From Macrolepiota albuminosa (lineage: Eukaryota; Basidiomycota; Agaricomycetes; Agaricales; Agaricaceae): a stretch of 64,000 bases of DNA. Positions within the stretch are counted from its first letter, which is position 1; the number at the start of each line of letters is the position of its first letter. The notes under the pieces are model-generated. The model was given only the letters and a program-made list of their open reading frames with translations, ran no database searches and was not told the origin of the DNA. The DNA is taken from NCBI GenBank assembly GCA_027475525.1, contig JAMWFC010000077.1, positions 372,001-436,000 of the forward strand, in the 5' to 3' direction. Positions 6,489 through 50,334 of this stretch are shown piece by piece. The position numbers were made by a program, and so were the translations under genes.

Positions 6489-6642
6489 TATATATTAGTG
6501 TCTATCAACATAAATCCAAGAATTGGATAGCATGATATGTATTGATAAGTAGACAAATAAAACATTATATATTAGTGTCTATCAACATAAATCCAAGAAT
6601 TGGATAGCATGATATGTATTGATAAGTAGACAAATAAAACAT
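6489..6642. repeat. Perfect tandem duplication, period 77 bp
   Basis: Bases 6489-6565 are repeated exactly at 6566-6642; the bases just outside break the match. It is one of eight duplications of the same period in this window and is probably an assembly overlap. Confidence 0.9.
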
Positions 6643-8339
6643 AGAGACTTAACTGTTTCTGTAGGCATAGAAGATATTGACATCAATGACTTCTATACAG
6701 AAACAGATGTATCTCTCTGCAATTGTGGCTTCATATTTATAGCTTGTAAACATGGGTGTCCAGAGTGTGCCTGGGGTCCCAGGGTTGGGACAATCAATGA
6801 GATGTTCTTCCTGATTCTTGTCTGTTACCACATGCTCAGGCATTTCAAGACAATGGGAAGGAAAAAGATCATCATTGTTTGCAACATGCAGGGATAATAA
6901 ACTCACATGGACTGCAACCCTCCCATTGTGTTTCTGAACATACTCTCAGCATTGGTTTGCTGTTGACAACATAAATTTGCCTCCCACCTGATATGCCTGG
7001 TGAGTATCCACATAGTGAGCTTGTGTAATCCTGGAGGTCATTAAATTGTCCATTGCATCAAGGACATTGTTCTCAATATCAAGCAGAACTCACAGGGTAA
7101 GATTCTCAGCAGTAGTATCCATGGGTAGAGGAGGGTACAGGGGAATAATCAACTACAGTGAAAATCCAGACTTTAATTGGAATGGAGAATATCCTGTGGA
7201 CACATTAACTGTATTTATGATGCCAAAACAAATCCGTGGCAAGGCCTTCATCCAGCCCTTTTGAAGTCAATTTACATGGAATTGTATAAACTGAATAATA
7301 GTCTTATTTGACTGTTCCAAAGAGCCATCTGTCTGTGGATGAAAGGCAGTTGACATTTTATGCTTAATTCCACTGAGTTTCATCAAAGCTTTCTAAAAAG
7401 CCAATATAAACAAGGCATTGCAGTCTGTGAAAATTTCATAGAAGAGGCTGTTGAGATGGAGTTGCATGGGATGATAGGTTGTAGGGGCGTGATGGCATAG
7501 GCTGATATGGTAATTGGGAAGCGCAAGTGCACATAGTGACAGATCGGAACTTGGGAATACCTCAGTCTATTTTACATGGACTGAGGTATGTCTCGAGTGC
7601 TTGTAGAACCGAATACCGTTACTTACGATATTCAGTACTCGTGTTGATAACAGGTACATATCATGGAATAGAGTCTATTTTACACAGACTGAGTACTCGT
7701 GTTGATAACAGAGGCTATTCTTGCAATACCAGTTGCAGAAAAAAATTACTGCAAAATCCTCCTCTGTCTGCATAGTTATTTGAATATCAGCCCCAGCATG
7801 ACAAGTTATTGGGCAGAATTGATCAAATCTTTTGTCTATAGGAAGAGGTCCAACAAAGACCAAGGGTGACTGGTCCAAATCAAGTCTTGGGCACAGGTAA
7901 TGGATGCAATGGTCTGACTGGTTTAGACATGCTACTCTTGTTTTGCTGACAGTTGATGCACCTGAGAATATATGCCTTCAACAAGTCCTTGCACATGTTA
8001 GGCCAATAGTAAGAGTGACAAAGCATGACATAAGTCTTATCCACACTGAAGTGTCCTAATTTGTCATGTACAATGCAAAACAAGTTCTCATGCAAGTTCT
8101 TAAACTTGGGAACCACCAAACAATCTCCTACATAAATCAAAACATTTCACATTACCATACCTAGAACCACCAAATCTGTCTTCCAATCCTTCAGCATCCA
8201 TTTTGCCAAATACCCTTGCTGAATTGTATTCACAATTTCATTGTCCAGCTCCAATGAAATGATTGGAGCCACCACTATGTGTGCAGTGTCAGGGATCCAG
8301 AAAAGCATGTCTGCAACAATATTGTCTTCACCTTGTATG
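6643..8339 (-). pseudogene. Degraded Gypsy pol (RNase H end to integrase)
   Basis: Reading the minus strand from 8339 downward gives the end of an RNase H (IVADML-like region, then VVAPIISLELDNEI). A zinc-binding integrase domain follows (HDKLGHFSVDKTYVML, then CINCQQNK). The integrase core comes next, with a DFVGPLP-like start, AFHPQTDGSLEQSNKT around the catalytic Glu, and STGYSPF. Stops and frameshifts are frequent and a solo LTR (7449-7710) splits the core. The 5' half of pol is gone; an LTR of another family begins at 8340. The region has almost no CpG, consistent with age. Confidence 0.75.
7449..7710. mobile_element. Solo LTR with TSD GAGGC
   Basis: A 262-bp TG...CA segment is flanked by GAGGC at 7444-7448 and 7711-7715. 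Removing it rejoins the Gypsy integrase sequence on either side. It contains repeated ACTCGTGTTGATAACA blocks. The orientation of the parent element is not known. Confidence 0.75.
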
Positions 8340-8445
8340 TGTAAGGGTGACCTCTGGAGGCTATGGCTCAGTCACACAACTGGCAGAGAGAGATCCAAAG
8401 TGTATTAGAGTATATACTGACAATATCATAGCAACTACTCACCTG

Positions 8446-8746
8446 TGTTGGACACCGGTGGTACACCGTAAGTGGCACAGTATGATATGACCCAAAAAGG
8501 GTTGAATGACATTAATTTACTTACCCTGATACAACTCGAATAGACATATATACAGACCACACAATCTATGTCACCCTCAGTCAAGTATACGAGACTGAGG
8601 GTGAGTACAATACATACCTATATACAACCTTCACTTACAATCTCTCCTACCATAGTACTCACTTGTGTGCTATAGATAGGATTAATACCAGTCAAGTATA
8701 CGAGACTGAGGTACTCACTCATGTGCTATAGGTTTAGGTTGTAACA
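8446..8746 (+). repeat. Copia-1 5' LTR
   Basis: Starts TGTTGG and ends GTAACA; 301 bp, matching 13620-13920 without gaps. Confidence 0.95.
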
Positions 8747-8756
8747 GGTTATGGGA
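8747..8756 (+). other. Copia-1 primer-binding site (half-tRNA iMet type)
   Basis: GGTTATGGGA follows the LTR directly. GGTTATGGG is complementary to the anticodon-loop region of initiator tRNA-Met, the primer mode known for Drosophila copia. The same 9-mer follows the 5' LTRs of Copia-2 and Copia-3. Confidence 0.7.
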
Positions 8757-8965
8757 CTGTGCTGCTTTGTGCACTGACGTACGATCCTACAACTGAGACT
8801 TTTTTTTTCTTTGCCTGTGTGGACTACCTGCCCGACGTGTGTGGGTCTCTGCTTGATATTGCTGTCTGATTGCTGCGTGCACTGTGTTGCATGTTGCCTC
8901 TGCCCTGAGGACACGCACTGTTCTGGTCCCATACCTTATCTCTGTTCTTGATTACAATCACTATT

Positions 8966-10236
8966 ATGGCGCTGCCTACTGTTACTGCTGGAGATGCTGA
9001 AAGTTCTCCTCCACCTGTGGCTGATGATGACATATGGGAGATGTGTCATGTTGATAGCTCTCCACTGATTGTTATGCAGATAAAGGTCTCCCTCCAATAC
9101 TCTGGGGACCTCCTTGCAAAGGATGACAGAAAGTGGACCCCGTGGTCCAAATATATGAAGTTGGAACTCACGATGTCCAGACTCTACGAATACATTTTTG
9201 ACCCTCCTGATTTACCTCACAAAATGCATGAACCACGTGCATACCAGAATTGGCAGCTAAACAATCGCCTTGCCCACTCCTTCCTGATGCTGGGCCTCTC
9301 TGAGTCAGAGCGAAACCTGGCTGACGACTCAATTGATGTGTGGGCTCTATGGGAGTACTTGCAGGCACGGCATGGGGGGCAGGTCCGGTTCAACAAGTTC
9401 AACTACTTCAGGAAGCGTTGACCATGAAGTGTTCGCCAGCAAAGCCTATTACCAAGACGATAGATCACATTTTCAAGAAAATTAATCGTGCGTTTGATGT
9501 CAGTGAGGTGACGAAGGACCTCCTACAATCCATTGCTGCCTTATCTTCCCTTTCTGACAACTCCCTCTATGTGAATGCAAGGTTGATCATCTCTCATGAT
9601 CTTGCAGTGGCCACTGCCACCTTGCCCTATGGTCCTGATGACATTCAACGTTTCCTGGAGAATGAGCAAACACTCTTTGTTGCTGACCAGGGCATAGCTG
9701 ACATGCCACCGACTGCCTTAGCTGTTTGTCCCACCAACCAACGTGACGACTTGATCTGCGATGCATGTAAAACTTGTGGACGACCTACTTACACAGGGCA
9801 CACTAAACCTTGGTGTGTCTTGGAAGGTGGTGGTATGGCCAGGAAGATGCTTGATGAGGTGAGGACCACCCACCTGGCCCACTATAAGACAAAGAGGGAC
9901 AACAGGGACAAGAAGAAGGGCACAACAAAGCTTACCTTTATGCCGGCAGGCGGCGCAGCTTTTATGGTTGAAGGTGACCCTGATACCCTTGCAGCATACA
10001 TTGCGAGCCAGGCAAAACTTCCTGCTACTGTGACAAAACCAGAATTTGCAGGTTTAGCATCTGATACAATTCCTGACACTGATGGACTTGCGACAGCAGA
10101 GAGTCTTGAGGTTGATGCATGGGTTGTGCTGGAGGAGGAGCCAAGAGTGAATGTTGATTGGAAAGACTATACAAACACTGAGAGATGCTTTCCAGCACCA
10201 CCAGTATTACCACCAACACTTACCCCTTCTTCCTGA
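8966..10236 (+). pseudogene. Copia-1 gag, frameshifted
   Basis: Gag begins with MALPTVTAGD (ATG 8966; an in-frame ATG at 8948 is possible). It includes the UBN2-like segment SKYMKLELTMSRLYEYIF and a C-terminal zinc-binding motif CKTCGRPTYTGHTKPWC. One base appears missing near 9412: the frame reading NYFRK stops at TGA and the continuation ALTMKCSPAKP lies in the next frame. A second frame change near 10185-10236 separates gag from protease. Family members usually have one gag-pol frame, so both are read as decay. Confidence 0.75.
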
Positions 10237-13200
10237 ATTCTGGTGCAACTGTTCACATCTCACCGAACATATCCGATTTTGGGTCTATTATACCCATTAC
10301 CAAATCCATCTGGGGTGTAGGTGGATCAGCAAGCTCTGCTACAGCAATAGGAAGAATATGCTTACCCCTCATTGATGGATCCTACCTCACACTAGATGAT
10401 GTGTTACTTGTCCCAAAAGCTTTTGTCAGACTTCTATCAATCAGCTCAATGGCAAAGAAAGCCGGTATCTTTACAACTTTCAGTGACGTTGAAGCTACAC
10501 TATTTAAGAAAGACACAAAGAAGTTAGTCGCAAGTGGAACACTAGTCCCTATGCAAAACTTATATGCACTGAACCTTCAGAACGAGTCTGCATTCGCAAT
10601 TCATTTATCACTCACCATTACAACATGGCACCGATGCCTAGGCCACGCTAACTACCAGACAATCATCAAGATGGCAAAATCTGGAATGATTGAAGGTATG
10701 CCCTCCACCTTCCCTACCAAACCTCTGAAATGTGACAAGTGTATCCTTGGCAAGCAGGCAAGGACACCAGTCCCAAAGGTCAGGGAAGAGGGCATAGGGC
10801 ATAGGGCAACGTGGTGACTAGGAATTGTATGGGTAGACTTGACTGGAAAACAAGATATAACTTCATGCACTGGAAATAATTATATCATGAATATAGTCGA
10901 TGACTATACAAACAAACCATGGTCCATGCCGTTGAGGCTGAAGAGCGATGCTTTTGGTGAACTAAAAGCATGGATCCTAGCACGACAGGTCGAAACAGGA
11001 CTCAAAGTAGGAATCTTATGGTCAGGTAATGATTCTGAAATTATTGCTAAGGAGAATGAGACATGGTTCCGTTCACAAGGTATAACAACTCAACATGGCA
11101 TAGTGTACACTTCAGCACACATGGGGCATGTTGAATGAATGCATCGGACACTTATGGGAAAAAGTATTGTGATGCGCCTGTATGCGAAATGCCTGCCATT
11201 TCTGTGGGACGAGTTCTACTTAACAGCGGCTCACCTTCACGGAAAAACAAAAACGTCAGCTGTAAACAATGTTACACCTGACGAATTGTGGTATGAATGA
11301 CGGCCCAACTATTCATACATCCGCAAAATTGGGTGCTGTGTATTTGTCCTGATCTTTGGTAAAAGCAATCCAAAGATCTATAAGCAATCTATTGAGTGCA
11401 TATTGATTGGTTACGATCCAAAAGCCAAAGCATACAGGTGTTATGACCAGGCTTCAAAGCAAGTTTATAGCACGTCCATGTGAAGTTTGTCAAACACCAT
11501 GACAATAGCAACAGTGGCACCAATACCCCTTACTCAACACTTCCAGACCCTGCAACTGTACCAACAATTGACACTATATCAAAGAGAGCCATGGATCAAC
11601 CATTTATCATTCCTGATGACGATGATGAACCTGAAAGAATACCTGCTAATCCTGTCCCTAACATTGAACAAGTAGTTGAGGAGAACGAGCCAGCACAGGA
11701 GCTCCCATGTAGATCTACATGGATCCCAATACCAATGGCCAAGAGTAAACCTGATGATGCACCAGAGACAAGGGTGCAATGAGCTGTAAGGAAATCCAAG
11801 GAGTCAGCAGAACGGATATGAGCTGCAAGGGTGGAGCGCCAACAAGCCATACAGGAGCTTCACTGTGGCAGGAATGGCGTCAAACAACAGGAAGTAGCAG
11901 ATGAGAATGTCAACTTAGATCAACTACTGGTAATGTTAAACATAATCAAAGATGAACTAATTATCAATGCCAGTGATCTTGATCCTGAGGTGCCAAGGAC
12001 ATGGAGCCAAGCTAAATCGAGCCATGACATGTTGAGATGGAAGGCAGCATACAAGGATGAACTTAGATCCTTGAAGGAGATGGGGGTTTACAAGCTCATA
12101 CCAAGGGATGAAGTACCTGTAGGTCACCAAGTCCACCATGGCCAACCAGTATTTGCCCTTAAACAAAATGAAAAGTGACACATCGTACGTTTTAAGGTGT
12201 GGCATGTTCTTCAAGGTTTCAACCAGATACATGGAAAGGAATACACTAAGACCACCTCACCAACTGCATGCACAGAATCCTGGCGCATACTCCTTCACCT
12301 AGCAGCAGCACAGGGCTGGGATGCAATGCAGATCAACGTTAAAATGGCTTTTCTGTATGGTGTATTGCCTGAAGAGGAAACAACTTACATGGAACAACCC
12401 AAAGACTTTGAGGAACCAGGAAAAGAAGACTACGTATGCAAACTTGAGAGAGGGCTTCATGGAATGAAACAAGCTGGTAGAATTTGGAATAGGACACTCA
12501 ATGAGAACATGGTCATGAAGTGGGGTTTCACAAGACTTGCCTGTGAGTCCTGCATGTATTACAGGAAGTCTGATCAGGGAGTAGTCATTGTGGCTATCCA
12601 CATTGATGACTTCTTGTCAATTGCAAGTTCCAAAGAGGCAAATGCTTGTTTCAAGTCCCAGTTGCAACAAGCTTGGACAATTTCTGATTTGGGCACACCA
12701 AGACAACTTGTGGGGATTGCCATAGACTGGGACAGAGAGAACCGTGCAGTTTACCTTTCCCAAACGCCTATCATTGACAGATTGATCTCTCAGTTTGGGC
12801 AGCAGAATGCACACCCTCTCTCTTTGCCAATGGAACCTGGCCTGAAGCTGCGTCGTGCAGATTACTTGACATTAGACCAGAAGAAACGTGATGACATAGC
12901 CAAGATCCTCTACTGAAAACTGATCGGAGGCCTAATCTGGCTAGCTATATCTTCCAGACCTGACATACAGTATGCTGTTCAACAGCTCAGTTAGTACTTC
13001 AACTCTTACTCTGTAACACACTGGAATGCAGCAATCTGGGTCCTTTGTTACTTGAAGGGCACGAGAGACATAAGACTGCGTCTGGGCAGATCCTCTCCTA
13101 TCTCATTAGCTGGCTTTACTGATTCTGACTGGGCTAATTGTCTTGACACTCGATGAAGTGTCGGAGGGTATGCTTGGTCCCTAGGTTCCGGAGTCATCTC

Positions 13201-13560
13201 ATGGGCTTCACATAAACAGAAAACAGTGGCAGCGTCTTCCTGCGAGGCAGAGTATATGGCGGCGTTCGAGGCGGCGCAAGAATGCATTTGGTTATGGACA
13301 CTCCTCTATGTGATTGGCTATAGAGAACAGGATGCAACAGCCATTATGTGCAACAATAACGCCACGATAAACCTGTTGGAAGACCCACTGCTGCACTCCC
13401 GAGTCAAGCATGTTGACATCAAGTATCACTTCCTACACAAGCAGGCAGAGTTGAAGGAACTTGTTGTGAAATACATTAATATGAAGGACAATATTGCAGA
13501 CTGATTTACTAAACCCCTCCCCTTACCATGGTTCTCCTGACTTCGACGAATCCTTGGGTT
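10200..13560 (+). pseudogene. Copia-1 pol (PR-IN-RT-RH), inactivated
   Basis: Order: protease motif FFLNSGATVHI (Asn replaces the catalytic Asp of D-S-G-A), a GAG-pre-integrase zinc domain (WHRCLGHANY ... CDKCILGKQ), integrase core (WVDLTGKQD ... VDDYTNKPW), RT (VKMAFLYG, then IHIDDFLSIAS as the DD motif) and RNase H (SSCEAEYMAA ... ADxFTKPLP). In-frame stops fall near 10815, 11136, 11298, 11780, 11819, 12176, 12914, 12990, 13153, 13501 and 13537. Nearly all are TGA where family members usually have Arg; one is TAG for Gln. A one-base deletion near 11478 shifts the frame. Removing these lesions would leave a normal domain order. Confidence 0.85.
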
Positions 13561-13619
13561 ATCCTAGCCACAATTCCTTGCAAGGAAGAGCCCATAATGC
13601 CACTCACAGTGAGGAGGAG

Positions 13620-13920
13620 TGTTGGACGCCGGTGGTACACTGTAAGTGGCACAGTATGATATGACCCGAAAAGGGTTGAATGACATTAATTTACTTACCC
13701 TGATACAACTCGAATAGACATATATACAGACCACACAATCTATGTCACCCTCAGTCAAGTATATGAGACTGAGGGTGAGTACGATACATACCTATATATG
13801 ACCTTCACTTACAATCTCTCCTACCATAGTACTCACTTGTGTGCTATAGGTAGGATTAATACCAGTCAAGTATACAAGACTGAGGTACTTACTCGTGTGC
13901 TATAGGTTTAGGTTGTAACA
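13620..13920 (+). repeat. Copia-1 3' LTR
   Basis: 301 bp, preceded by the purine tract GAGGAGGAG and followed by TSD ACCTG at 13921-13925. Confidence 0.95.
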
Positions 13921-14280
13921 ACCTGGGAGAGGGAGATCCAAAGAGAACAAGTCTAGGGATTCTCTATGCCAGGTTGGATGCTTCTGGGGCCTCTGAAGCA
14001 TAGGAAACAACTGTACAGTACAACAAAACCTTGAAAACTCAAAAATTGCCTAAACAAATAAGTGCACAAACAAGGCAGGTAAACTCTGGCTTATATAAGT
14101 GGTCTGGAAGCAGTACTGAAGGGCCCACACCTGTCTGAATGATAGCTAAAGAACCAGAGCTCCTCAAGAGCTGAGAATAGTACTAATGGATAGTGTTAAA
14201 AGAGTAGAAGCAGTAAAGTAAAAGAATGACAGCAGAAATAAGGGAATGAATAAAGGGAGAATGAAAGAGTGAATGAGGAG

Positions 14281-14435
14281 TCTGTCAGGGGACTCCTCAT
14301 TTCTTCCTTCTTTCACTCCTTATCTCTTCACTCTCCTTTCATTCATTCTCTTATTTCTCTGTCAGGGGACTCCTCATTTCTTCCTTCTTTCACTCCTTAT
14401 CTCTTCACTCTCCTTTCATTCATTCTCTTATTTCT
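14281..14435. repeat. Tandem duplication, period 77 bp, in LTR-X
   Basis: 14281-14357 is repeated at 14358-14434. The unit begins exactly where the reversed LTR-X meets the plus-oriented one. Probably an assembly overlap. Confidence 0.9.
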
Positions 14436-14453
14436 TCTGTCATTCTCTCATTT

Positions 14454-14627
14454 TGTAACGGAGTCATCCGTATTCTCAGTGTCAACAACGCTATAATCGA
14501 TTAGTAGAGTATTACGTAAGACAACATCTTGTTTTCACTCTAAGTACTAGTCAAATCCGATACTGCGGTCTGATTTAGCACTTGAGTGATACACACAAGA
14601 TAGTTCTAACCCGTAACTACGGTTACA
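14454..14627 (+). repeat. Gypsy-1 5' LTR
   Basis: 174 bp, TGTAACGGAG ... GGTTACA. It differs from the 3' LTR (duplication ignored) at two positions, both CpG transitions. No standard tRNA primer site is obvious after it. Confidence 0.93.
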
Positions 14628-14738
14628 TTTTTTTAAATCTTCTGCTATCGGCTTTAGACTCTAGGCTTGTTACCGACTAGGCAACTCTCATCAAAACCTC
14701 TCAATTCTCTGTTGGCATCACGCTGAAAACATGCTTCC

Positions 14739-17390: not shown

Positions 17391-20300
17391 CACACATCCG
17401 AGCGGCCCATATGGCTGCGGCACCTAGCGATGTCGTCAGTGACGACGAGGACGACGAGATCGTTGAGGAAGCGGAGGAAGAACCGCAGGTAGAGGCTGAC
17501 GGGTCGGAAGTGGATGACGCTGAGAGCGTCCAGATTGATGGCGACGAATACGTCGCAGTGGATGTGTACGACAGCGACTACTATGCTCGTGATGACGAGG
17601 AGGAACACCTGTTTGCACTGACGGAGTGCCGTGGAGATCAGCGCGTCCGAATGAGACATGTAACCCTGCAGAAGGCAACTAATAAGTTGCAGCGGCCACG
17701 CTATACTCCCGAAGAGAAGGAGTGCCTGGTCACGTATGTTGATGTCAACGGACATCCGGCATGGACGTTGTGGGACTCTGGGAGTACCACTACGGGCATT
17801 ACACCCCAGTTTGCTCACGTCAACGTGATTCGCGTTCATGAACTGGAGGAGCCATTGATGCTCCAGCTGGGGACTGTGGGGAGTCGCGCAATGGTGCAGT
17901 TTGGCGCGGAGGTGAGAATAAAGATGTCAGGAACGTCGACAAAAGAATACGTGGATATAGCGAATTTTGATCGCTATGACATGATTATCGGTACGCCGTT
18001 CATGCGTAAGAACAAGGTGTCGCTGGATTTCGTGAACGACATGGTCGTTGTGAATGGTACGCCTTTGAAGGCGGAGAAAGTGGTGTTGAACAATACAGAT
18101 GGTCGTTTGAGGCGCTATCGCGCAACTGAAAAGCGGCGTGATGAGCGCAACTGACTAGATGGTCGCAGGAGAGCGACTGTACAGGAGGTGGAGGACAAAC
18201 AGGCCCCACCAAAAAGCCTGCCGGCAGATTCGCCAGCTATACTGATGTCTGAGGAAGAGTTTCAAGGAACTCTGAAGAAGGGGAAGCACCCGGATGTGAT
18301 TGGGTGTACCAATGGAAAGCCTAAACAGGCTGTACAGTGCAAGAATGAGTGTGGTAGACACGTGGTGGAGTCGCTGGAATGCCAGCCGACTAGCTCTCGA
18401 GTGAAGGTTGAGGATCTTGTCAAGGACAAGGTATACAGTATGATGGGAACTGTGGGTAGCACTAGGTCGCTAATGGATTGACCAGTGCCTCGGCCAGGAG
18501 TGCAATGGGTGTATGACCCACGAATGCCATGGGAGTGGAATGAGTTGGTAGCGTCAATGGTGACGCAGGCTATGGGAAGTGGGCAAGCGACCCAGACGGG
18601 AGAAGTGTACCGTCACGCACAAGAGGACAAGATTTCCGAAACATCGGATATTGTATTTGACGGATTTTCGCTGAAAGCGAGAAGTGTGCAGTCGTCGGCG
18701 AGTACGACGAGGAAACAACCGGTTGTAAGGTTGAATCCGGGAGATCTCACAGAGGAGCACGTACATGCCTTACGGGAGCGATTTGAACCAAAGGTTCAAC
18801 CGCCTATAGCACGCGTAGCCAAAGGAAAAGGCAAGGCTTTGAGCCTTACAGAGGAGGATATTCCTCGATTGCGCCAGCAATGGCAACTGGAGTTCGCTGA
18901 TATCGTCAATGGAACGAGGGAAGAGCTTCCTCCATGGCGGGAGGTTAATCATGAGATCAACCTCATTGACAATAACAAGCAGTACAAGTATCATTTGCCT
19001 CGCTGCCCACGAGCACTTCAGGATCAACTTCGTGAAAAGACGAATAGATACATAAACGCAAAGTGGTGGGAACCACAACCAGCGGTGCAAGCTGCACCAT
19101 TGCTTTGTATCCCCAAGAAGGATGGAACATTACAGACTGCATTGGATGCGCGACAGCGCAATGATAATACTGTCAAGGATGTAACACCTCTTTCAGATCA
19201 GGAAGTGATACGAGAAGATGTCGCGACAGCGAAGTATTGGTCGAAAATCAACCTCACAGACACGTACAAACAGGTTCGCATCTGCGAAGAGGATATACCA
19301 AAGACACTGTTCTCGTCCCTGATGGGGACGTTCGTGAGTAACATCATGCAGATTGGTGATTGTAATGCACCGGCGACATTTCAGAGGTTAATGACCTCAA
19401 TCTTCCGAGATGTAATTGGGAAGTTTATGCACGTCTATTTAGACGATATATTCATATTTTCTGACTCCATTGAGGAGCATGAGCAGCACCTATGAGTCGT
19501 ATTTGAACGACTACGGAAGGCCAGCCTCTACCTCAAATGGAAGAAGTGCGAGTTGTACGCAACAAGTATAGATTGTCTCGGTCACGTCATTGACGAGAAG
19601 GGCATTCATCCGGATACGGATAAGCTCGACCAAATCCGAGAGTGGCGTACTCCACGCACATATAATGATATCCAACGATTTGTCGGACTGGTGAACTATA
19701 TTGGCAATTTCTTGCCAGACATCACTGCATACACTGGGCCACTTATGGCCATGACCCAGAATGGGTCACCGTTTCATTGGAGACCACTGCATCAGCGGTG
19801 TTTTGAGATGATTAAGCGCATATGCGCGAAAACGCCAATGGGTCACCGTTTCATTGGAGACCACTGCATCAGCGGTGTTTTGAGATGATTAAGCGCATAT
19901 GCGCGAAAACGCCAGTCATCTGGCCAATTGACCCACGCATCGACAAGCCCATCTGGCTCATTTACGATGCGTCAAAGACTGGGGTTGGGGCCATGTTTGG
20001 CCAGGGTAAAACATGGCAGACTTGCCGACCAGCGGGATTTATGTCCCGTAAATTCACTGCTGCTCAGCAGAATTATGCTGTGCACGAGTTAGAAACACTC
20101 GCAATCCTGGAAGCCCTCCTAAAGTGGGAGGATAAACTGATGGGATATAAGATCCATATTATCACAGATCACAACGCACTAGAGTTCTTCAAGACTCAGG
20201 TGCACCTGTCTCTGCAACAACGTCGCTGGATCAACTACATGTCGCGGTACCAGTTCGACATCACCTATGTAAAAGGTGAATTGAACAAAGTGGCGGATTG

Positions 20301-23330: not shown

Positions 23331-23485
23331 AAGAGCGACTATGGAGAGTCGAGCTCGGAGCAGGAGGAGGACGGGGAGGAGGGGGAATTGGCCGCAGACC
23401 GATTCCAAAGAGCGACTATGGAGAGTCGAGCTCGGAGCAGGAGGAGGACGGGGAGGAGGGGGAATTGGCCGCAGACCGATTCCAA
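23331..23485. repeat. Tandem duplication, period 77 bp, in ORF3 acidic region
   Basis: 23331-23407 is repeated at 23408-23484. It shifts the ORF3 frame; counting it once rejoins the frames. Confidence 0.92.
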
Positions 23486-24478: not shown

Positions 24479-24631
24479 TGGGATGGATGGCGGGAGATGA
24501 CTGAAGACGATCACTATCGTCTGATGTTCAAGCACCACAAGGAGAGCAAGCTCCCTGGGATGGATGGCGGGAGATGACTGAAGACGATCACTATCGTCTG
24601 ATGTTCAAGCACCACAAGGAGAGCAAGCTCC
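24479..24631. repeat. Tandem duplication, period 77 bp, in ORF3 C-terminal half
   Basis: Bases from 24479 recur 77 bp later at 24556, with 76 consecutive matches. It causes the apparent frame break at 24577. Confidence 0.9.
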
Positions 24632-25343
24632 TGGAAAACCCTGAGGCCAACGGCCTCTATTACTTGATTGGCATGGACCCGAATCGGGTCAACCTCCTAA
24701 AACGCTTGGCAGCGCATGACCTGCCAACAGCGGACATGGACCCAGGCCAGGTCAATCTCCTGTCACGCATGGCAGAGCAGGGTACGCTTACCACCACCGC
24801 TTCAGCGATTAACGTCGCACTAACAGAGCCTATGGTGGTAGACACGCCTGCAGCCGAGGGGCCTATAACCCCACCGAGGACGGAATCGGCGCCTCCCCCT
24901 CCCGCGATTAACGTCGCACTGGAGGAGGAGGCAATGGTGACTGAGACAGGCGCTGTTGCGGGAGCATCGTCATCCGGGTCCTAGACCCTTGTATACGTTA
25001 TTGTGTATGTACCTCCGAGTATTTCACTCGAACCATTTCAGCTGATACGCACTCTAGAGTCGCATGTAGATACAGCGGACCCAGAGGAGGGGTCATCTTT
25101 TTTGTTTTTTATATTTTGTTTATACATACCATTGTCTATCTACTGCTGGCACCCCCTGCGCCCTTGTCTGATAAGGACTGCTTTCTATTGTGTCCAGCCA
25201 ACACATCTCCATTGCGCATGAGTGCTAACGCCTTGCAGCCACGCCATATGCGTGTATTCATCCGTTGTTTGCACTACCGTGCATCTTTTATCTCGCTCTA
25301 CTTCCCTTTCTCAAGACTGAGTATTCGGTCTCATTGGGGGGTA

Positions 25344-25594
25344 TGTAACGGAGTCATCCGTATTCTCAGCGTCAACGACGCTATAATCGATTAGTAGAGT
25401 ATTACGTAAGACAACATCTTGTTTTCACTCTAAGTACTAGTCAAATCCGATACTGCGGTCTGATTTAGCACTTGAGTATTACGTAAGACAACATCTTGTT
25501 TTCACTCTAAGTACTAGTCAAATCCGATACTGCGGTCTGATTTAGCACTTGAGTGATACACACAAGATAGTTCTAACCCGTAACTACGGTTACA
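25344..25594 (+). repeat. Gypsy-1 3' LTR (with internal 77-bp duplication)
   Basis: Begins TGTAACGGAG after a G-rich tract (TTGGGGGGTA) and ends GGTTACA. It is 77 bp longer than the 5' LTR because 25397-25473 is repeated at 25474-25550. Confidence 0.93.
25397..25554. repeat. Tandem duplication, period 77 bp, in the 3' LTR
   Basis: Exact repeat of 77 bp plus 4 bases of continuing match. It is absent from the 5' LTR, so it did not come through reverse transcription of this element. Confidence 0.92.
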
Positions 25595-31681: not shown

Positions 31682-31689
31682 GTGAGGCA

Positions 31690-31916
31690 GTGACGATCAG
31701 ACGAGGTGAGAAATAATCCATTCCTTATACAAGTCATCAAGTGACGATCAGACGAGGTGAGAAATAATTCATTCCTTATACAAGTCATCAAGTGACAATC
31801 AGACGAGGTGAGAAATAATCCATTCCTTATACAAGTCATCAAGTGATGATCAGACGAGGCGAGAAATAATCCATTCCTTATACAAGTCATCAAGTGATGA
31901 TCAGACGAGGTGAGAA
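31690..31916. repeat. 51-bp minisatellite upstream of P450 copy A
   Basis: About four and a half units of 51 bp (AGTCATCAAGTGACGATCAG... with ATCCATTCCTTATACA) with a few substitutions, immediately upstream of the P450 ATG at 31681. Copy B at 53215 has a single truncated unit. Confidence 0.9.
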
Positions 31917-31931
31917 ATTGTTACAATCTTT

Positions 31932-33274: not shown

Positions 33275-33429
33275 TTTAAATTACAAAAGAAGTTTGATTT
33301 ATTGCTTGACAAACCTTACTTTGTTTATCTTACAGTTTAGTAAATAACAATTTTAAATTACAAAAGAAGTTTGATTTATTGCTTGACAAACCTTACTTTG
33401 TTTATCTTACAGTTTAGTAAATAACAATT
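33275..33429. repeat. Tandem duplication, period 77 bp, in SINE body
   Basis: 33275-33351 is repeated exactly at 33352-33428. Confidence 0.92.
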
Positions 33430-33470
33430 AGCCAAGCAGGTCAAAAATTCCAGACAGTTTGATATCAATG

Positions 33471-34669: not shown

Positions 34670-34689
34670 TGGTTGCACCGCTGATGTCA

Positions 34690-36782: not shown

Positions 36783-37008
36783 TATTTAATACAGTTCAAC
36801 TCAGTCAGTGTAGTAATGACTGTATTTGTAGTTACCTGTTTAATACAGTTCAACTATATGTACTTTATTAATGACTGACAGTAACTTGATGTAATTAGAT
36901 CACATACCTCAGTTGGTGTAGTAACAACTGAGGTATATCCGAATTCCCTTTGCTTCTATTTTCCTCTGGTCATATGATCATAACACATCTATAATTCTAC
37001 TCCAAACA
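36783..37008 (-). repeat. Copia-2 3' LTR
   Basis: 226 bp, close match to 41305-41530. Its first base pair on the plus strand has changed (TA instead of TG). Confidence 0.9.
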
Positions 37009-41290: not shown

Positions 41291-41304
41291 TGGGGCCCAT
41301 AACC

Positions 41305-41530
41305 TGTTTAATACAGTTCAACTCAGTCAGTGTAGTAATGACTGTATTTGTAGTTACCTGTTTAATACAGTTCAACTACATGTACTTTATTAATGACTGA
41401 CAGTAACTTGATGTAATTAGATCACATACCTCAGTCGGTGTAGTAACAACTGAGGTATATCCAAATTCTCTTTGTCTCTATTTTCCTCTGGTCATGTGAT
41501 CATAACACATCCATGATTCTACTCCAAACA
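41305..41530 (-). repeat. Copia-2 5' LTR
   Basis: 226 bp. The plus strand reads TGTTTAATACAG ... ACTCCAAACA. TSD CAACC follows. Confidence 0.92.
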
Positions 41531-41639
41531 CAACCTCCACCAAGTCTTCTACAGTGCATGCATTGTAGGTAGACCTCAAGCATCTCATCTGGTGTAGATT
41601 AGACTGTAGATTCTTTACTGTTGCCAGGTCTAGATGGAA

Positions 41640-44565
41640 CTATGCCAGCATCTCACTGCAAAGCTTCTGCTCATGAGTGAGTAGGTGGAAGACTACCTCG
41701 TGTTTCTTAGCTATCTTTATCATCCTCATTAATGACTGAGGGACATTTGCAATAGTTTCCCTTGTGTTGATTCTGGTGCCCTGTGGAAATGGAGTCATCA
41801 GTTTTCTGACCTTATTCCTGTGTATTTTTGCCATGTTAAGGGCTAGTAGTTTATCTGCTAATACTGCCCATCTTAGTCTGTTCTCATCAAGAGCCAGATA
41901 TCTCTGTATCTTTATTATTTCTATCACCTCATTGCATGATTTCAAGTCTAGAATCTTTCTACCACCTTCTTCAGACAGTAATCTTAATGTTGCCATCCCA
42001 ACAGGATGTGTGGAAGTAGTATTCCAGAAGAATTCTTTCATTGTCCTTGTTAGAATATTCTCCACTTGCTTTGGCATATCTTGCACCCTAGTCCAGTATT
42101 GTGTTCTCCTTCCTATGACTATATTTATTATGTGTCTTTGTCCTGACATTGTCAGGTTGTCTTTGTTCCAGCACTTCAGGTCTTTATTGATGATCTCTGT
42201 TGTCAGCACCCATATACTGATGTCATTCTTATAGTTGCCAACAAAAGCTCCCAGAAGGTGTGTGAGTTTTCCATCATTGGCTATTTTAATGTTGTCTTGT
42301 ATTGCTCAGCAGTCAGAGTGTATTTTCTGTGTGGTGAGCAATCTATCTCTGTATCCTTGCATTTCCATAAGGACTATCACCATCTTTGGAATATTAAAAT
42401 GTGCTCCAGATATGTCACACCATTCTTGTAGTATAGTCTCCAGGTCCTCAAAACAGTCCTCCTCAGGAAGGTATACCATTGTATCATTAGCAGAAAGTGT
42501 TGCTATTATCCTTTCAATGTCTGTATCTGCTTTAAGCCTTTAAGTTTGGATTTTCTCAACATCTGTGCTAGGGATTCTATTGCAATATTGAATAACAGGC
42601 AGGAGAGGGGGTCTCCTTGGTGTACTCTCTGTCTGACTTTGAAGCTTCTGCTTATCTCTCTATTTAGGATTATTCTGGTGTATGCATTGTTGTACAGATG
42701 TTTTGCAATATCTATAAATGACTTTGATATTCCAAATCTTTTTATTGTTATTTATAAGAAAGTGTGTAGAATTTTATCATAGGCCTTCTCTTGATCCAGA
42801 CAAACAATCATTCTGCTAGTGCCAGTGTGTCTACACCATTCAATAGCTATTTGTGCCAGCTCAGTTTGGTCTTCAATTCTTTGTCCAGACATGAATCCAG
42901 CTTGATCTGAGTGGATGTTGTGTGGGGTGGCATGGCTTAATCTTGTAGTAAGGACTTTTGTCATTATCTTGTAGTCTGTATTTAGCACAGTTATGGGTCT
43001 ATAATTATCTATGTCAGTTTTATCTCCTTTTTTATATAGTGGGCATAGCCAGCCCTCAGCAACATCAGTTCCTTTTGTCATTACATATTCATAAATATCA
43101 TTGAAAACTATCTCAAATGCTTCTAGTACATCAAAATCTGTGAGACTGTTCTCATCAGATTCCTTGGAGCCTGCTGCTAGGTCTGCCCAGAGCTTATGTA
43201 TTATCTATCCTATCTAGGCCTGCCACCTTTCCTCTTTGTAGAGCCTGTATTGCTTTTCTGATTTCCTCCTTTGAGATTGGGCCTTCCAACTCTTCTAACT
43301 GTTTGGGAGGAACCTTTTTGTCAAGGTTTCTTAGAACCTTCTTGATTATTTGTATATGCATCCTAGGATCCATTGGTATGTCCTGGTCTTGAAGCTCTTC
43401 ATCGTAGGTCTTTGCAATGTCAGCCATCTCAGCTGACTGTCTCTCTAGATCTTCCCTATTTAGGTGGGGTTTTCTCAGAGCTGTTATCATATCTCTCATT
43501 TCTCATATTTAATTCATTTTGATCTACAACTTGCACATGGTTTTGCCAATTAAGAAATAGTTTGCATCTGTTGTGTCTCTTGCTCTCATGAATCTGGAGG
43601 CTTCAAGGAGGTGAATTCTTTCATCTAGTATCACCATCTCCTCCACTCTGGTACTCTTATCCATGGCACAGTTATTCAGGACTTTGGATTGATTCTTCTT
43701 TAGTATGTAGATTTCTTTCAAAATTTTTGATTACTTTCTTTTGAGTGTTGACAAATGATATCAGTTAGGCACTTTTTGAAGGCCTTGTGTAATGTTTGGG
43801 GGTTGTGTTCTTCCACTTAGCCATCCTTAGGTTTTCTAGGTGTTGCCTGCTAATCTCCTCTATCTGTTGCCTGATATTACTATCCTTTATGAGTAGAGCT
43901 GGCATTGCATATTTACCTTCCTCTATGTAAAGTTGCCAGGAATTCAGAAGGGACATTCTCACTAGTGCATAGTTAGTACTCATTCTGGATCTTTCTATTT
44001 TCCAGTCCCAGCTAAAGGGTAAAAGGTCTTTGCTAAGGTATATTCTATCTATTTTTAAGTGGATTGGTCTGTTTATTATATGGAATAAGAAGTCCACAGT
44101 TACTGGATTCTCCCATTGCCATCCATTGGCCAAGGAGAGGCATAACTTTAGCAGGGCTAGGGTGTGTACTGTTTTGGTGAGATCTGGGTGTGTTGGAAGC
44201 TAATCTATTGCTTCTTCTACCATGTTAGTGTCTCCTAGCATAATTTAAGGCTATTTCATATGTGGTCTTATGCCCCAGTTTGCATTGATTTTCTTTCAGA
44301 AAACTTTGTTTTCCTTAAAGTCATTAGGTGCATATGCATTCAGGCAACTCATTGGTTTATCATTCTGCCAGGGTATTTCTAGGATTGCTGCTCTTTCTGG
44401 GATGATTTTGTGGAAGAAGGACTCTGCCCACCTTGTTGTGCTCTTGTTTAGTATAAAGGCAATGCCTATAGCATTCAGTCTATGTATATCTAGGCTGGAG
44501 TATATATGGATCTGTCTTTGAAAGAGAGTGTTTAGTTGATTAGTCATGTCCAGGTTCAGATGCAT
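41640..44565 (-). pseudogene. LINE endonuclease and reverse transcriptase, inactivated
   Basis: Endonuclease: IAFILNKSTTRWAESF, ERAAILEIPWQN, LNAYAPND and LKIDRIYLSKDL (the SRIDRIY-like block). RT: KKGDKTDIDNYRPITVLN, LSHATPHNIHSDQAGFMSG and IVCLDQEKAYDKI (motif A Asp kept); the catalytic YADD motif near 42500 is degraded. The C-terminal part reads EEGGRKILDLKS. Many frameshifts and stops between blocks. Confidence 0.8.
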
Positions 44566-45124
44566 TTTCTAGACCACTAATATGTTAATCTTGTTCATTC
44601 TCATTAGTAAGTTTATTTCTAGCCATTTGTTTTACATGGAGGTTGAGTGCTCCCCTTTCATATTTAGGGTTGCAAAATGCACTGCACTCTGTCTAGTCCA
44701 ATCTGAAGTTCCCAGGCAAATGCATTCAATGTTTTTACCAAAATTCTGCCCATCTCTATTTAGGGTAGTACATGAGTCTACTTCTTCAAATAGTTGACTA
44801 ACATGCCATGAGCCTTGCCAATCCCTCTCAGGCCATCCTAGGCGTCATGTTTGATGGTGTTGCCATAGTCCCCTCCTGCCCAATCAGAGAAGTAACCATT
44901 GTTGTTGTTATCTTTCTGTTGTGTTTGTGTATCTCTTATAATGTCAGGTAGTGGTTTTAGGTAATGTATCAGGTGTAAGACACTCTTCACTTGAGCAGGA
45001 GCACTGCAAACACAACTCTTATAAATATAATGCCATCTGAGCTCATTCTAGCTCATCTAGGGGGTCCTACTTGGGTTACCTGTCACTCTTGGGCCCAGTA
45101 AATTCACCCTTATAATAAACTCAG

Positions 45125-45745
45125 AAGTTCTTAGACCAGAAGAAGCCAAGGCTGCCTTAACTAAAGCAAAGGATGACATGGCCTGCTACTATGATTGTGG
45201 ACGAACTCCAGCCTCCAAGTACAAGCCTGGAGATTGAGTCTATCTAGATGCCTTTGACATTGCTACTACTCAGCCTTCTCAGAAGCTCTCTCATTTTCAT
45301 CTGGGACCCTTTTCTATGGTAAGGCAAGTAGGCCCACTAGCTTATCAACTCAAGTTGCCTAGTGGAATGAGTTGACTCCATCCAGTCTTCAATGTAGTAA
45401 AGCTCTCTCCTGCACCAGAGGATCCAATTCCAGGTCAACGTCCACAGCCACCCCCTCCTCCAGTTCTGGTAGATAACAAGGAAGAGTACAAAGTGGAGTG
45501 GATCCTAGACAGCCAACTTTTTCGAAACAAGCTTCAGTTCAAGGTCAAGTGGAAGGACTATGGAATCAAGGACATCTCCTGGAAGCCACAAGAAAATGTC
45601 CATGCCCCTGCCTTGGTCCGGGAATTCTATCAACAGCATTCCAATGCTCCCCAGGCAATCAGAGGCCTCTATTCTCTTTCCAAGGGTGGACCAGGCCATC
45701 CAGAACTATTTCTATCCAGCATGTCAAGACACCATGCTCTAAAGA
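45125..45745 (+). pseudogene. Gypsy-3 pol C-terminus with chromodomain
   Basis: Integrase tail (KAKDDMACYYD, PSQKLSHFHLGPF, HPVFNVVKLSP) followed by a well-kept chromodomain (EYKVEWILDSQLFRN, FKVKWKDYGIKDISW). Stops occur at about 45237 (TGA) and 45371 (TGA). It is followed by a purine tract AAAGAGGGGTGA and LTR-X, which shows LTR-X belongs to a chromovirus. The 5' part is lost. Confidence 0.85.
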
Positions 45746-45752
45746 GGGGTGA

Positions 45753-46250
45753 TGTCAGAGGACTCCTCATTTCTTCCTTTTTTCACTCCTTATCTCTTCA
45801 CTCTTCTTTTATTCATTCTCTTATTTCTTCTGACATTATCTCATTTTACTGTTTCTATTCTTTCAACACTATCTGTTAGTACTATTCTCAGCCCTTGAGG
45901 TGCTCTGGTTCTTTAGCTACTATTTAGACAAGTGTGGGCCCCTCAGCACTGCTTCCAGACCGCTTACATAAGCCAGAGTTTGCCAGAGTTTGCCCCTTAT
46001 TTGTGCAATTATTTGTGTAGACAATTTTTGAGTTTTCAAGACTTTGTTGTACTGTACAGTTGTTTCCCATGCTTCAGAGGCTCCATAAGCATCCAACCTG
46101 GCATAGGGAATCCCTAGACTTGTTCTTTTTGGATCTCCCTCTGCCAGGTGAGTAGATATTATGATATTGTCAGTACATACTCTAATACACTTTGGATCTC
46201 CCTCTGCCAGCTGTATGACTGAGCCACAGCCTCTAGAGGTTGCCCTTACA
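45753..46250 (+). repeat. LTR-X, 3' LTR of Gypsy-3
   Basis: 498 bp, TGTCAGAGGACTCC to GCCCTTACA. It contains TTATTTGTGCAATTATTTGTGTAGACAATTTTTGAG, the unoccupied form of the Ngaro-2 insertion site, quoted in parts at 45999-46034. Confidence 0.88.
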
Positions 46251-46780
46251 CTTTCTTTCACAAAGTCTCCCAGTTCACTAAGTCTCACTTCAATCTTCTC
46301 TTCCATTTCTTGGTCTCAGTCTCTTCTCCAATCACCTCTTCCTTATCTCTCTGCCCTCCCTAGCTCCATTTCTCTTTGCCACATCTCAGACTTAGCCCAG
46401 GATCCTGCTTCTTCATCTCTTCAAACTCCAGCACCCCACATACTCCCTAGAGCACCCTCACACCTTACCCAAAACTCTGGAGCTCACACGCTGTTGTCTG
46501 GGGACACTCCATAGACTTTGAGTCCATCTATTAAGAACCTGCTTGTCATTGGAAGCCCCCATTGTCAATGGAACCTGATAAGGGCTCCTTTCATCTGTTG
46601 AAGAATGAATCCATCAAGCTTATGGGGCAGGAATTCTGCATTTTACCCAATTCTGTAACTAATATAATATTTCTGAAGATCTTCATATGCCTGCTAATCC
46701 AGCCTTGACCACTGGCTTTGTCACGTGACATGTTGAAAAATGCTCTTCAGATTCTATAAAATTATGGCTCTATGGCTTAT
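46251..46780 (+). other. C/T-rich flank then start of degraded recombinase
   Basis: A plus-strand Ser/Leu-rich open stretch to 46514 has no known domain; CpG nearly absent. The last part (from about 46600) may be the N-terminal region of the recombinase remnant that follows. Confidence 0.3.
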
Positions 46781-47350
46781 GTCTTTAACCTTCTTTTAAT
46801 CAGGCCCCATGACCAGCTAATGATCTTTGAATAAAATCTTTACAATGGGCAGCCAAATCTCAGGGACTTTCTTTCAAACAACCACTCCAATGTCTACTTT
46901 CTCTCACACATTTACAAACTCTTCATTTACAAACTCTTCATGATAATTTAGACTTTTCCATCCCAAAAAATCTTGCTGTTTGGGCTGCTGCTCTGACAGC
47001 TTTCTGGAGTTGTCACTGATTGGGTCAACTTTTTGTCTTGTCATAAAACAGATTCGATTCTACTTATAATATAACAGTCAACTTTTCTATGTGTACTACT
47101 CATATTTGCAATTATCAAATCCTTACTTTCTATATTCCATGGACTAAAACAACTCATTTTGCAGGCTCTGATTGCAGTCTGATAGATAGACAGGATTTTT
47201 TCTGTCTTATCCAAGCTCTTACAAATCATCTTCAAATTAACAAAATTTCAGATAGATATTCATTGTTCTCATTCTGCACTTCCTCTTCTACTCTGTCATT
47301 TCTGACAAAAAACATGTTACTTGTTGTCATAAATAGTAATTAATTTTCCT
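46781..47350 (+). pseudogene. Degenerate fungal tyrosine recombinase
   Basis: Translated pieces resemble fungal DNA breaking-rejoining enzymes of the Crypton/DIRS type: NLYNGQPNLRDFLSN, IPKILLFGLLL/AVWAAALTAFWSC-like in a second frame near 46965-47005, then ILTFYIPWTKTTHFAGSDC and LIQALTNHLQIN (47115-47240). The catalytic His-x-x-Arg and Tyr blocks are not found downstream. Stops and shifts are frequent. A different family from the recombinase at 56525. Confidence 0.45.
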
Positions 47351-48407
47351 TCTGGAAATTATTTACACTAATTTGTCTATAGACATTTATTTGAACAACC
47401 CTCTCAACAAGGTTCATGGTCATAGTTACAAAATTTGAGACTCTGTAAAATTCCTTTGTGATGGTGTGCCTCCTCACATTGTCATAAAACATAGAGGGTG
47501 GACTTCCCTGTATTTTTTTTATCTACTGAAGGTGTCTTGATACTATTGTTTCAAAAGCTGTTGTTGCTGCTTGGAAATTGGCCTGTCATCAATTTGTGAA
47601 AGAAAACAATCTCTTCAATGTTCTCAATGTCAATTGGTCTGATTTACTTAATCTTTTTCTTTCATAATAATTTTTCTCTTTTTTTTTTTTAAAAAAAAAA
47701 ATCAAATTAAATGTTTTTGCTCTTCTCATCCATCGCTTTTTATTTTCATTATCTTCTTTCTTCATGTACTTTTATACTTCATCATCCACATTACACATCC
47801 TTCCCATCTCATTTTATTTGTTAAATATATATATATATATATATATATAACTTTTTTGTCAAATCATTTCCTGTATTCCTACTCCATATTAATACACCAG
47901 AGGCATTTTCCAGCTCACATGATGAAAAATGACTTCAGTTCACTTGACCTGTAGGTGTCTTGTACTTGGGTCATATTATGCCTTTGTAGTGTCTTTGTAC
48001 TTGATCTGTTTCAATCATCCTTTTGCGAGTCCTTTATCATAATTTTGAAATATATCATTGCTTTCATGACATAACTAATCCAAAGTGACAAAGTGGTCAC
48101 AAAGATTTACAGAAATCTACAGTTGCATGCTCACCACCTTGTTGAATTCATCCACACTGCTACCAGCAGCATCATGGTCATTTCAATACTGCTTCTTGGA
48201 AATGGAGCCACTGATATCCATGTGTGATGTTGACACCATAGTAGCTTTGTAGGGAACACAGGAGTGGGGGATAAAGTTGGAAATACATACATTTCTTGAA
48301 CAAAGACTCAACAAGTACAAAGAATGTTGCGTATACACTTAAAGATAAGATGTCATTATTACAATCCCATTAAGGTGATGCACTCCTTTGTAAAGAATAC
48401 AAAACTA
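47351..48407. other. AT-rich region without a gene
   Basis: Contains a T-run/A-run pair at about 47680-47701, an (AT)n run at about 47825-47850 and several short ATG-led frames. No domain seen. Confidence 0.5.
47825..47850. repeat. AT microsatellite
   Basis: Uninterrupted TA dinucleotides. Confidence 0.9.
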
Positions 48408-48769
48408 CCTGTAGCTACCAAATACCATGCTGAATTAGGCATGGAATTTAGTCATATTCCACACCTAATTCTGCATGCTTTTCCTAGTTTCCCCTTCCTG
48501 CAATAATACAGGCATTATTTCAGACTTCACCATGATGCTGAGCCATTCAGGCACATTGTCAGCAGCCATCAAAGCAACAATCAAACATCATGGATATTGT
48601 TTGGCAATGCCCAGAAATAATACTGATTATTGATCCTGCCCCCTTGCTCATTGTGTCTGATGATGAGCTTACTCCCCTCTTCAAAATTCATTGAAAATAG
48701 TTACACCTATATAGACTATGTTTATTGAATGTAATAAGCGATATAAGTAAAGAAAATATCTAAATTAAA

Positions 48770-49750
48770 TGTCTGAAGAAATCTGGATCACATTATGCAC
48801 TTGTTCAGCCAGCAGGGCCTCGTCATCGTCATTGTCAACACCTCCCTTGTTTTCATTGCTGTCACTACTCTGTGTAATGCTCCCATCTACCTGACATTGC
48901 CACTGCAAAAAGATCTGGTGAGCAATTGTGCTGTCCTTAGTTGCCATAATCTTCTCTTGTTCTTGCAGATACACCTCCTTGTCTTGAATGTACGTGACTA
49001 GTTGTTGAATCTCAGCATTCAAGCAGACAATTTCTTCCTCAGCCTATTGAATCTTGAAATATTCATTTGTCATAATTTGTATGGCCAGCACTGCCCAAGG
49101 ATGTTCACGCACATCTTCACACATGTCTGATAAGAGATTGAAGTCTGCAAGGAAGGCGTATTCTACAATGAGGTCCCAAGAAAGCTTGGGGCATAGCAGA
49201 GAGAGAGCACATGCAGCAACATTATACTTGTCAAGTGCATTTGGCACAAATTGCAATTGTGCCTTGAGAGCCTTGCCAATATGCTTCTGCAACTTGTACC
49301 CTGTTCATACTCAATGTGGTTTTGATGCTACTTCACATGCCCATTTATGTACTTACTTATTTACTTATATCTTCCTTTCTCTTCTTATTCTTTTCCTATT
49401 CTCTAGCCATATTTCATAAAGGTCCATCGAGGCATATCTTTACTGGTATGTCCTTAGCTAGCACTTCTAGCATAGGTGGATGGCAACATAGTAATAGTAA
49501 TACTAGTTGTATTTGAACTTAGTTAACTCAAACATTTTCAAAACAACCAATTGCTCTAGACTATCAAGGCACCATTGGTAGCGATGCTTGGATGCCATCT
49601 CTGCTATTGTGTGCCACTCAGAGTGGGTTTGAATCCATTGTGTTACAATCCCAAGCTTTATTTCAAGGCCTTGAATGATTTTCAGGTTTTTTTCATGATT
49701 TTCCTGTATGTGATGTTGTTCTGTCATATTTTTGTAAGAAATAGAATGAA
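48770..49750 (-). pseudogene. KDZ transposase C-terminal fragments
   Basis: Three minus-strand pieces in order: 49727-49503 (LGIVTQWIQTHSEWHTIAEM, CLDSLEQLVVLKMFEL), 49292-49044 (HIGKALKAQLQFVPNALD, WDLIVEYAFLADFNLL) and 49022-48765 (MNAEIQQLVTYIQDKEVYL plus an acidic tail). Order and spacing match the C-terminal third of KDZ (Kyakuja-Dileera-Zisupton) transposases of mushrooms. The catalytic N-terminal part is absent, so the element cannot move itself. Confidence 0.65.
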
Positions 49751-50179
49751 GGAAAGCATGCCAGATTAGGCATGAATCTGCCTTTGTTGGATAATTTTTG
49801 ATGAATTTTGAAGAGGAGTAAGCTCATTGTTAGACACAATGAGCAAGGGGCAGGATCGATGGTCAGCATTATTTCTGGGCATCGCTGAACAATGTGTTCT
49901 TATTATTACTTTTGATAAACATGGTCTATACAGGTGTAACTATTTTCTGGAATTTTTCCAAGAATTTTTGATGAATTTTGAAGAGGGGAGTGAGCTCATC
50001 ATTGGACATGATGAGCAAGGGGGCAGGATCAATGGCTGACGTTATTTCTGGGCATTGCCAAACAATGTCCATGATGCACTGCTGGAACTGAAAGATGTTT
50101 CCATTGGAAAAAGTGTAAAAGAAACATGTTATACCATTTCCAAAGTGCCAATTTGATATAAAAAGGCACTTTGCTTTGT

Positions 50180-50334
50180 TTAAAGACTTTTTCTTCCAGA
50201 AAATGGCACATGGGAAATGGTATAACATGTTTCTTTTCTACTTTTTCCAATGGAAATTAAAGACTTTTTCTTCCAGAAAATGGCACATGGGAAATGGTAT
50301 AACATGTTTCTTTTCTACTTTTTCCAATGGAAAT
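50180..50334. repeat. Tandem duplication, period 77 bp, near the KDZ end
   Basis: 50180-50256 is repeated exactly at 50257-50333. Confidence 0.92.

What the first reader, a model, noticed from the sequence alone, without database searches (positions are those of the whole stretch)
6489..50334. Eight tandem duplications, all with period exactly 77 bp
Seen directly at 6489, 14281, 19760, 23331, 24479, 25397, 33275 and 50180. Each is a two-copy repeat with perfect or near-perfect identity (76-81 consecutive matches at offset 77), in unrelated sequence contexts and elements of different age. Biological slippage would not give one unit size in unrelated DNA. De Bruijn assemblers run with k=77 leave contig ends that share 77 bases, and joining them without merging gives exactly this pattern. 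The duplications therefore probably mark false joins or unmerged overlaps in the assembly.
Basis: partly seen in the sequence, partly recalled or inferred. Interest (0 to 1): 0.78.

Follow-up and report, generated by a model that had tools for sequence, protein, structure and literature searches.

The report
Unmerged 77-base contig overlaps
The eight exact 77-base tandem duplications are almost certainly not in the mushroom's DNA: they look like overlaps left unmerged when short-read contigs were strung together, and they recur in other parts of the assembly, so they matter only as a data-quality warning.

Summary
In detail: eight two-copy tandem repeats of period 77. They are not special to the window. 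Twenty 10-kb stretches from ten contigs of the same 100-Mb, 129-contig assembly hold 50 more; in periods 65-90 the only other run of 60+ is one at 88. Perfect runs are 77 plus chance matches. Other copies of the same repeats mostly carry the unit once and are collinear across the site, so these joins look correct; only the overlap was not merged. Two findings identify the cause. One of two 100-N gaps seen is flanked by the same 77 bases on both sides. Of 88 perfect duplications, 13 have their 77-mer in another fetched locus; in 9 of these the neighbouring base differs exactly at its edge, against 5.0% of simulated sites (stricter local null, P about 1e-6), as expected at a de Bruijn branch node with overlap 77. 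The organism is an Agaricales fungus. Extrapolated, about 25,000 joins add about 1.9 Mb of false sequence. No reads were available.

The parts
6489..6642 (.). 77-bp unit twice (6489-6565, 6566-6642), 77/77 identical
   Evidence: more than 20 other genomic copies of this repeat show the unit once by coordinates (pieces for query 1-266 and 267-453 overlap by about 77 in the subject); one copy, C48:410466-410957, aligns through in one longer piece and may carry its own duplication
14281..14434 (.). 77-bp unit twice, run 78; lies just left of the 5' LTR of a Gypsy element
   Evidence: L034 has one unit (76 of 77) followed by the same 20 bases as after the window's second copy; similar single units at window 45753 and 55743
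19760..19913 (.). 77-bp unit twice, run 78, inside Gypsy pol
   Evidence: single unit and collinear in 20 of 20 fetched copies that were chosen as single by coordinates; seven other copies (L002-L008) align through and carry 77-bp pairs at their own positions
23331..23484 (.). 77-bp unit twice, run 78, inside the Gypsy element
24479..24632 (.). 77-bp unit twice, 76 of 77 identical (last base C versus T), inside the Gypsy element
   Evidence: single unit and collinear in 20 of 20 fetched copies that were chosen as single by coordinates
25397..25550 (.). 77-bp unit twice, run 81, inside the Gypsy 3' LTR
   Evidence: the 5' LTR of the same element has the identical unit once at 14507-14583 with the same following 40 bases
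33275..33428 (.). 77-bp unit twice, run 78, inside a high-copy repeat
   Evidence: more than 20 other copies show the unit once by coordinates; L089 aligns collinear without gaps; of the copies that align through in one piece, the three fetched (L040-L042) carry 77-bp pairs of their own there
50180..50333 (.). 77-bp unit twice, run 78, inside a short element with terminal inverted repeats
   Evidence: terminal inverted repeats present on both sides; the copies in L044, L045 and L046 carry their own perfect 77-bp duplications at other places in the element

Best explanation
The duplications are assembly artefacts. Short-read contigs were built on a de Bruijn graph with overlap length 77. Contigs meeting at a branch node each keep the node's 77-mer at their end. 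A later scaffolding or joining step placed neighbouring contigs in the right order but put them end to end (or with a fixed 100-N gap) without merging the shared 77 bases, so such a join reads w-w or w-N100-w. The fungus itself has one copy. Shown: the single period, its occurrence in other contigs, one w-N100-w case, edge divergence at the 77-mer, and collinearity with single-copy relatives. Inferred: the assembler (SPAdes, whose usual largest k is 77, is a natural candidate, recalled, untested), the joining tool, and that reads would cover each copy at about half depth.
For: (1) One period only: 50 runs of 60 or more at 77 in 200 kb from ten contigs; in 65-90 otherwise only 88, once. (2) Perfect run lengths 77,78,79,80,81 = 41,27,5,5,1 against 44.4,22.2,8.3,2.8,0.9 expected for exact 77-base copies plus chance matches at 1/4 per side. 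(3) No decay series: 79 of 89 pairs perfect, nine with one or two differences, although they sit in repeats of different age. (4) L041 1351-1450 is a 100-N gap whose left 77 and right 77 bases are identical; 77 is the only suffix-prefix overlap of length 10-299. (5) Of 88 perfect duplications, 13 have their 77-mer exactly in another held locus outside that locus's own duplications; 9 of the 13 have a different neighbouring base there, exactly at the edge; simulated duplications give 904 of 18,046 (P 1.2e-9; first version 9 of 13 against 983 of 18,137). With a null from nearby positions (mean 12.7%) P is 1.3e-6. (6) Other copies of the same repeats have the unit once, in line, or have 77-bp duplications of their own elsewhere. 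(7) The RPB2 gene on C6 carries one too.
Against: No reads were available, so half coverage was not seen. 4 of the 13 testable sites show no branch among held copies, 19760 included, and 75 of 88 could not be tested. Nine pairs have one or two differences, one of them in the window, and a tenth (L008 near 1864) matches only 63 of 77 at offset 77; by eye its copies differ by a one-base indel. These need base correction or errors after duplication. Only 1 of 2 N gaps seen is flanked by the 77-mer. Duplications were not enriched in repeats of the held sample (13 of 57 units with a distant homologue against 82 of 365 control 77-mers), so breaks outside high-copy repeats need another cause of branching, such as a second nuclear haplotype. 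The 77-mer of 19760 occurs exactly but singly in 3 of 20 fetched copies, so not every occurrence of a duplicated 77-mer is doubled. No duplication was evident by eye from coordinates among chaperonin exons (35 matches) or tRNA synthetase exons (11 matches).
Confidence: 0.97

Rival explanations
1. A real mutational process in this fungus makes exact 77-bp tandem duplications.
For: The pairs are in the assembly in unrelated DNA; ten are imperfect, as if slightly aged.
Against: No spread of unit size or age; the same relation across a 100-N scaffold gap; edges coincide with points where other copies diverge; a duplication in the RPB2 gene that shifts the frame unless a second splice site is used (my reading).
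Confidence: 0.01
2. The duplications mark false (chimeric) joins of unrelated contigs.
For: Contigs that share a branch 77-mer can be joined to the wrong partner; joins outside the window were not checked for this.
Against: At the eight window sites the two flanks belong together by comparison with other copies or, at 50180, by the element's terminal inverted repeats. Within repeat families a swap between near-identical copies cannot be excluded.
Confidence: 0.05
3. A gap-closing or polishing program inserted a second copy of 77 bases, rather than contig ends surviving unmerged.
For: Ten imperfect pairs point to some base change after duplication.
Against: The pair around a still-open 100-N gap suggests that the overlap existed at contig ends before any closing; the branch-node edges point to graph ends.
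Confidence: 0.03

Closest known systems
False homotype duplication by overlapping sequence at contig boundaries (Vertebrate Genomes Project, PMC8081667, passages seen)
   Same: Same locus appears twice because overlapping contig ends were not merged; sits at contig boundaries.
   Different: There the overlap is described for overlap-layout-consensus assemblers and as about read length; here it is a constant 77 bases, as from a de Bruijn graph.
Positional bias at position k from contig ends in de Bruijn assemblies (PMC5368935, passages seen)
   Same: Trouble appears at a distance set by k from contig ends, because of unresolved repeats, and scaffolding does not remove it.
   Different: That paper describes false variant calls near contig ends; the passages seen do not describe tandem duplications left inside scaffolds.

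Membership tests
False homotype duplication at contig boundaries | Both copies come from one genomic locus | tested here: inconclusive
   Relatives carry one copy and pairs are near-identical, but no reads of these loci were available
False homotype duplication at contig boundaries | Lies at a contig boundary | tested here: inconclusive
   Seen directly at one scaffold gap (L041, 1 of 2 gaps); elsewhere inferred from branch edges
False homotype duplication at contig boundaries | Reduced read depth or excess k-mer copy number against reads | not testable with these tools
   No reads held
De Bruijn overlap of length k | Overlap length constant | tested here: met
   Minimum perfect run 77, excess as by chance; 79 of 89 pairs perfect and one with a length difference of a base
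De Bruijn overlap of length k | Overlap equals the k of the assembly that was run | not testable with these tools
   Assembler and its settings unknown; no paper of this assembly found
De Bruijn overlap of length k | Overlap k-mer is a branching node | tested here: met
   As a group: 9 of 13 testable sites against 5.0% null, local null 12.7%; not shown for the other 4, nor for 75 untestable ones

The most novel reading that the evidence does not exclude
A genome-wide, recent process in this mushroom that makes perfect tandem duplications of exactly 77 bp at sites where repeat copies diverge.
Probability: 0.005. Interest if true: 0.9.

Novelty: not a real feature. Interest (0 to 1): 0.12.

Why it matters
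Only for data quality. If the sampled density holds (50 in 200 kb), about 25,000 unmerged overlaps (two standard errors: 13,000 to 37,000) add about 1.9 Mb to the 100-Mb assembly. 77 is not a multiple of 3, so one inside an exon shifts the frame in the assembly; gene models, tandem-duplication surveys, indel calls and transposon dating on this assembly would be affected. The RPB2 gene already shows one. A scan for two-copy repeats of a single period is a cheap check for this fault in any assembly.

Tried and rejected
Enrichment in repeats: 77-mers at duplications had a distant homologue in held sequence in 13 of 57 cases, controls in 82 of 365 (duplications within 150 bases of a stretch's end were left out); no difference, so 'only in repeats' was dropped. 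Coding test: I sent Pfam the two flanking frames, apart, of five duplications out of those listed; one was a Helitron on both sides, two gave a retroelement match on one side only, two gave nothing. The single-copy gene test rests on RPB2 alone and is not proof, since the duplicated stretch holds what I read as an intron end and a second acceptor could rescue splicing. Chaperonin and tRNA synthetase searches gave no duplication evident by eye from coordinates. Literature: the listings showed no paper about 77-bp duplicates as such; searches for the assembly's own paper gave none that fits (one candidate seen in passages has a 42.7-Mb genome). The organism was not identified to species.

Full report
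WHAT IS THERE. The window is C62:372001-436000 of a 100,137,612-base, 129-contig assembly. An offset scan finds eight runs of 25 or more at period 77 and none at any other period from 20 to 300 except one 51-bp minisatellite with its multiples. The copies are identical except for the last base at 24479.

GENOME-WIDE. I took 20 stretches of 10 kb at round coordinates from ten contigs. They hold 50 period-77 runs of 60 or more; per stretch 1,4,2,1,2,1,0,4,1,1,5,0,4,5,0,5,4,0,0,10. In periods 65-90 the only other one is 88, once, inside one compound place in L010 that combines 77 with 88, 165, 242, 356 and 433. The mean is 2.5 per 10 kb, standard error 0.58, which extrapolates to about 25,000 in the assembly, if these ten contigs are typical. 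Over the 318,925 bases taken, including loci fetched for similarity to the 19760 site, there were 79 perfect and 10 imperfect pairs at 77, and 2 at the other 25 periods.

LENGTH AND AGE. Perfect runs have a minimum of 77 and their excess follows chance matching at the two ends (41, 27, 5, 5, 1 observed; 44.4, 22.2, 8.3, 2.8, 0.9 expected). There is no series of decayed pairs. Nine of the ten imperfect pairs have one or two differences, 8 of 11 of them transitions in the register printed; the tenth, L008 near 1864, matches 63 of 77 at offset 77, and by eye its copies differ by a one-base indel. I read these as changes made after duplication, such as base correction (inference).

EMPTY SITES. 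For 24479 and 19760 I fetched 20 other genomic copies each, chosen because their BLAST pieces overlapped as for a single unit. All 40 align without gaps to left flank, one unit, right flank. For 33275, one of four fetched copies aligns without gaps; the other three seem to need a one-base indel, as their BLAST pieces are one base longer; more than 20 copies are single by coordinates, and nine align through in one piece, of which the three fetched carry 77-bp pairs of their own. Site 6489: more than 20 copies single by coordinates; C48 aligns through in a longer piece. Site 23331: most listed copies single by coordinates in a capped list, C82 aligns through in one piece and may carry its own duplication. 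Site 14281: L034 has one unit followed by the same 20 bases, and two further places in the window have similar single units. Site 25397 lies in a 3' LTR; the 5' LTR of the same element has the identical unit once at 14507 with the same following 40 bases and 3 differences in the 54 bases before. Site 50180: the element keeps its terminal inverted repeats, and three other copies of it have perfect 77-bp duplications at other places. L002-L008, relatives of the 19760 region, likewise carry 77-bp duplications at their own positions. So the flanks belong together and the second copy is extra.

THE TWO SPECIFIC TESTS. First, L041 holds a 100-N gap at 1351-1450. The 77 bases before it equal the 77 bases after it, and no other suffix-prefix overlap of 10 to 299 exists. 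The second gap seen, in L025, has no such overlap. Second, a de Bruijn contig ends where its last k-mer has more than one continuation. Of 88 perfect duplications, 13 have their 77-mer exactly in another held locus, not counting places inside that locus's own duplications; in 9 of these the base before or after differs there. Simulated duplications at other positions of held sequence, with the same freedom of register, give 904 of 18,046. An earlier version without that exclusion gave 9 of 13 against 983 of 18,137. With a null from within about 900 bases of each site (one of the 13 had none and received the mean) the mean is 12.7% and the chance of 9 or more is 1.3e-6. The other 75 duplications could not be tested. 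Against a simple picture, the 19760 unit occurs exactly but singly in 3 of the 20 fetched copies, so only some passages through a 77-mer were broken into contigs.

ESSENTIAL GENE. The PF00562 search found two places, C6 and C92. The C6 gene is RPB2: its frames align to chain 3h0g_B, residues 298-422 and 419-1154 (that 3h0g is from fission yeast is recalled). A perfect 77-bp pair at L029 3538-3691 lies between them, across what I read as an intron end and exon start.

ORGANISM. The best RPB2 matches are Arthromyces matolae (96%), Lyophyllum atratum (95%), and at 94% Tricholoma furcatifolium, Asterophora parasitica, Moniliophthora roreri and Termitomyces sp.. An Agaricales mushroom, perhaps near Lyophyllaceae (family placements recalled).

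MECHANISM AND PRIOR WORK. Trouble at position k from contig ends of de Bruijn assemblies, caused by unresolved repeats and not removed by scaffolding, is described in PMC5368935 (abstract and passages). Overlaps at contig boundaries are one type of false homotype duplication in PMC8081667 (passages); PMC9516828 lists signs of false duplication (passages). This case looks like that fault with a constant 77-base overlap. That SPAdes commonly ends at k=77 is recalled and untested.

VERDICT.

Noticed in passing
window 31689-31918: A 51-bp minisatellite, about 4.5 copies at 96% match; the only other tandem repeat with runs of 25 or more at periods 20-300, probably real.
   Followed up: no
window 14453 to about 25600: A Gypsy-type LTR retrotransposon: RVT_1, RNase H and integrase-type Pfam matches, LTR sequence shared between 14453 and about 25343; its right end was not determined. 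It holds four of the eight duplications.
   Followed up: partly
window 8909-12916: Copia-type retroelement pieces (RVT_2 match at 12179-12913; the rest by eye).
   Followed up: no
window 56525-60846, minus strand: Three long frames of about 350-410 aa that look by eye like a tyrosine-recombinase retroelement; the two tested gave no Pfam match at 1e-3.
   Followed up: no
window 50077-50355: A short palindromic element with terminal inverted repeats CACTGCTGG; about 40 places scored out of 261 candidates in the genome.
   Followed up: partly
G000 contigs C87, C13, C106, C101, C104: Repeated match pairs about 82 kb apart on C87 (422222, 504456) and on C13 (365527, 447904), and near-identical match patterns on C13 and C106 and on C101 and C104: possible uncollapsed haplotypes or large duplications in the assembly.
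   Followed up: no
L010 5464-6115: A compound of periods 77, 88, 165, 242, 356 and 433, as if a tandem repeat had been walked several times in a graph with 77-base overlaps.
   Followed up: no
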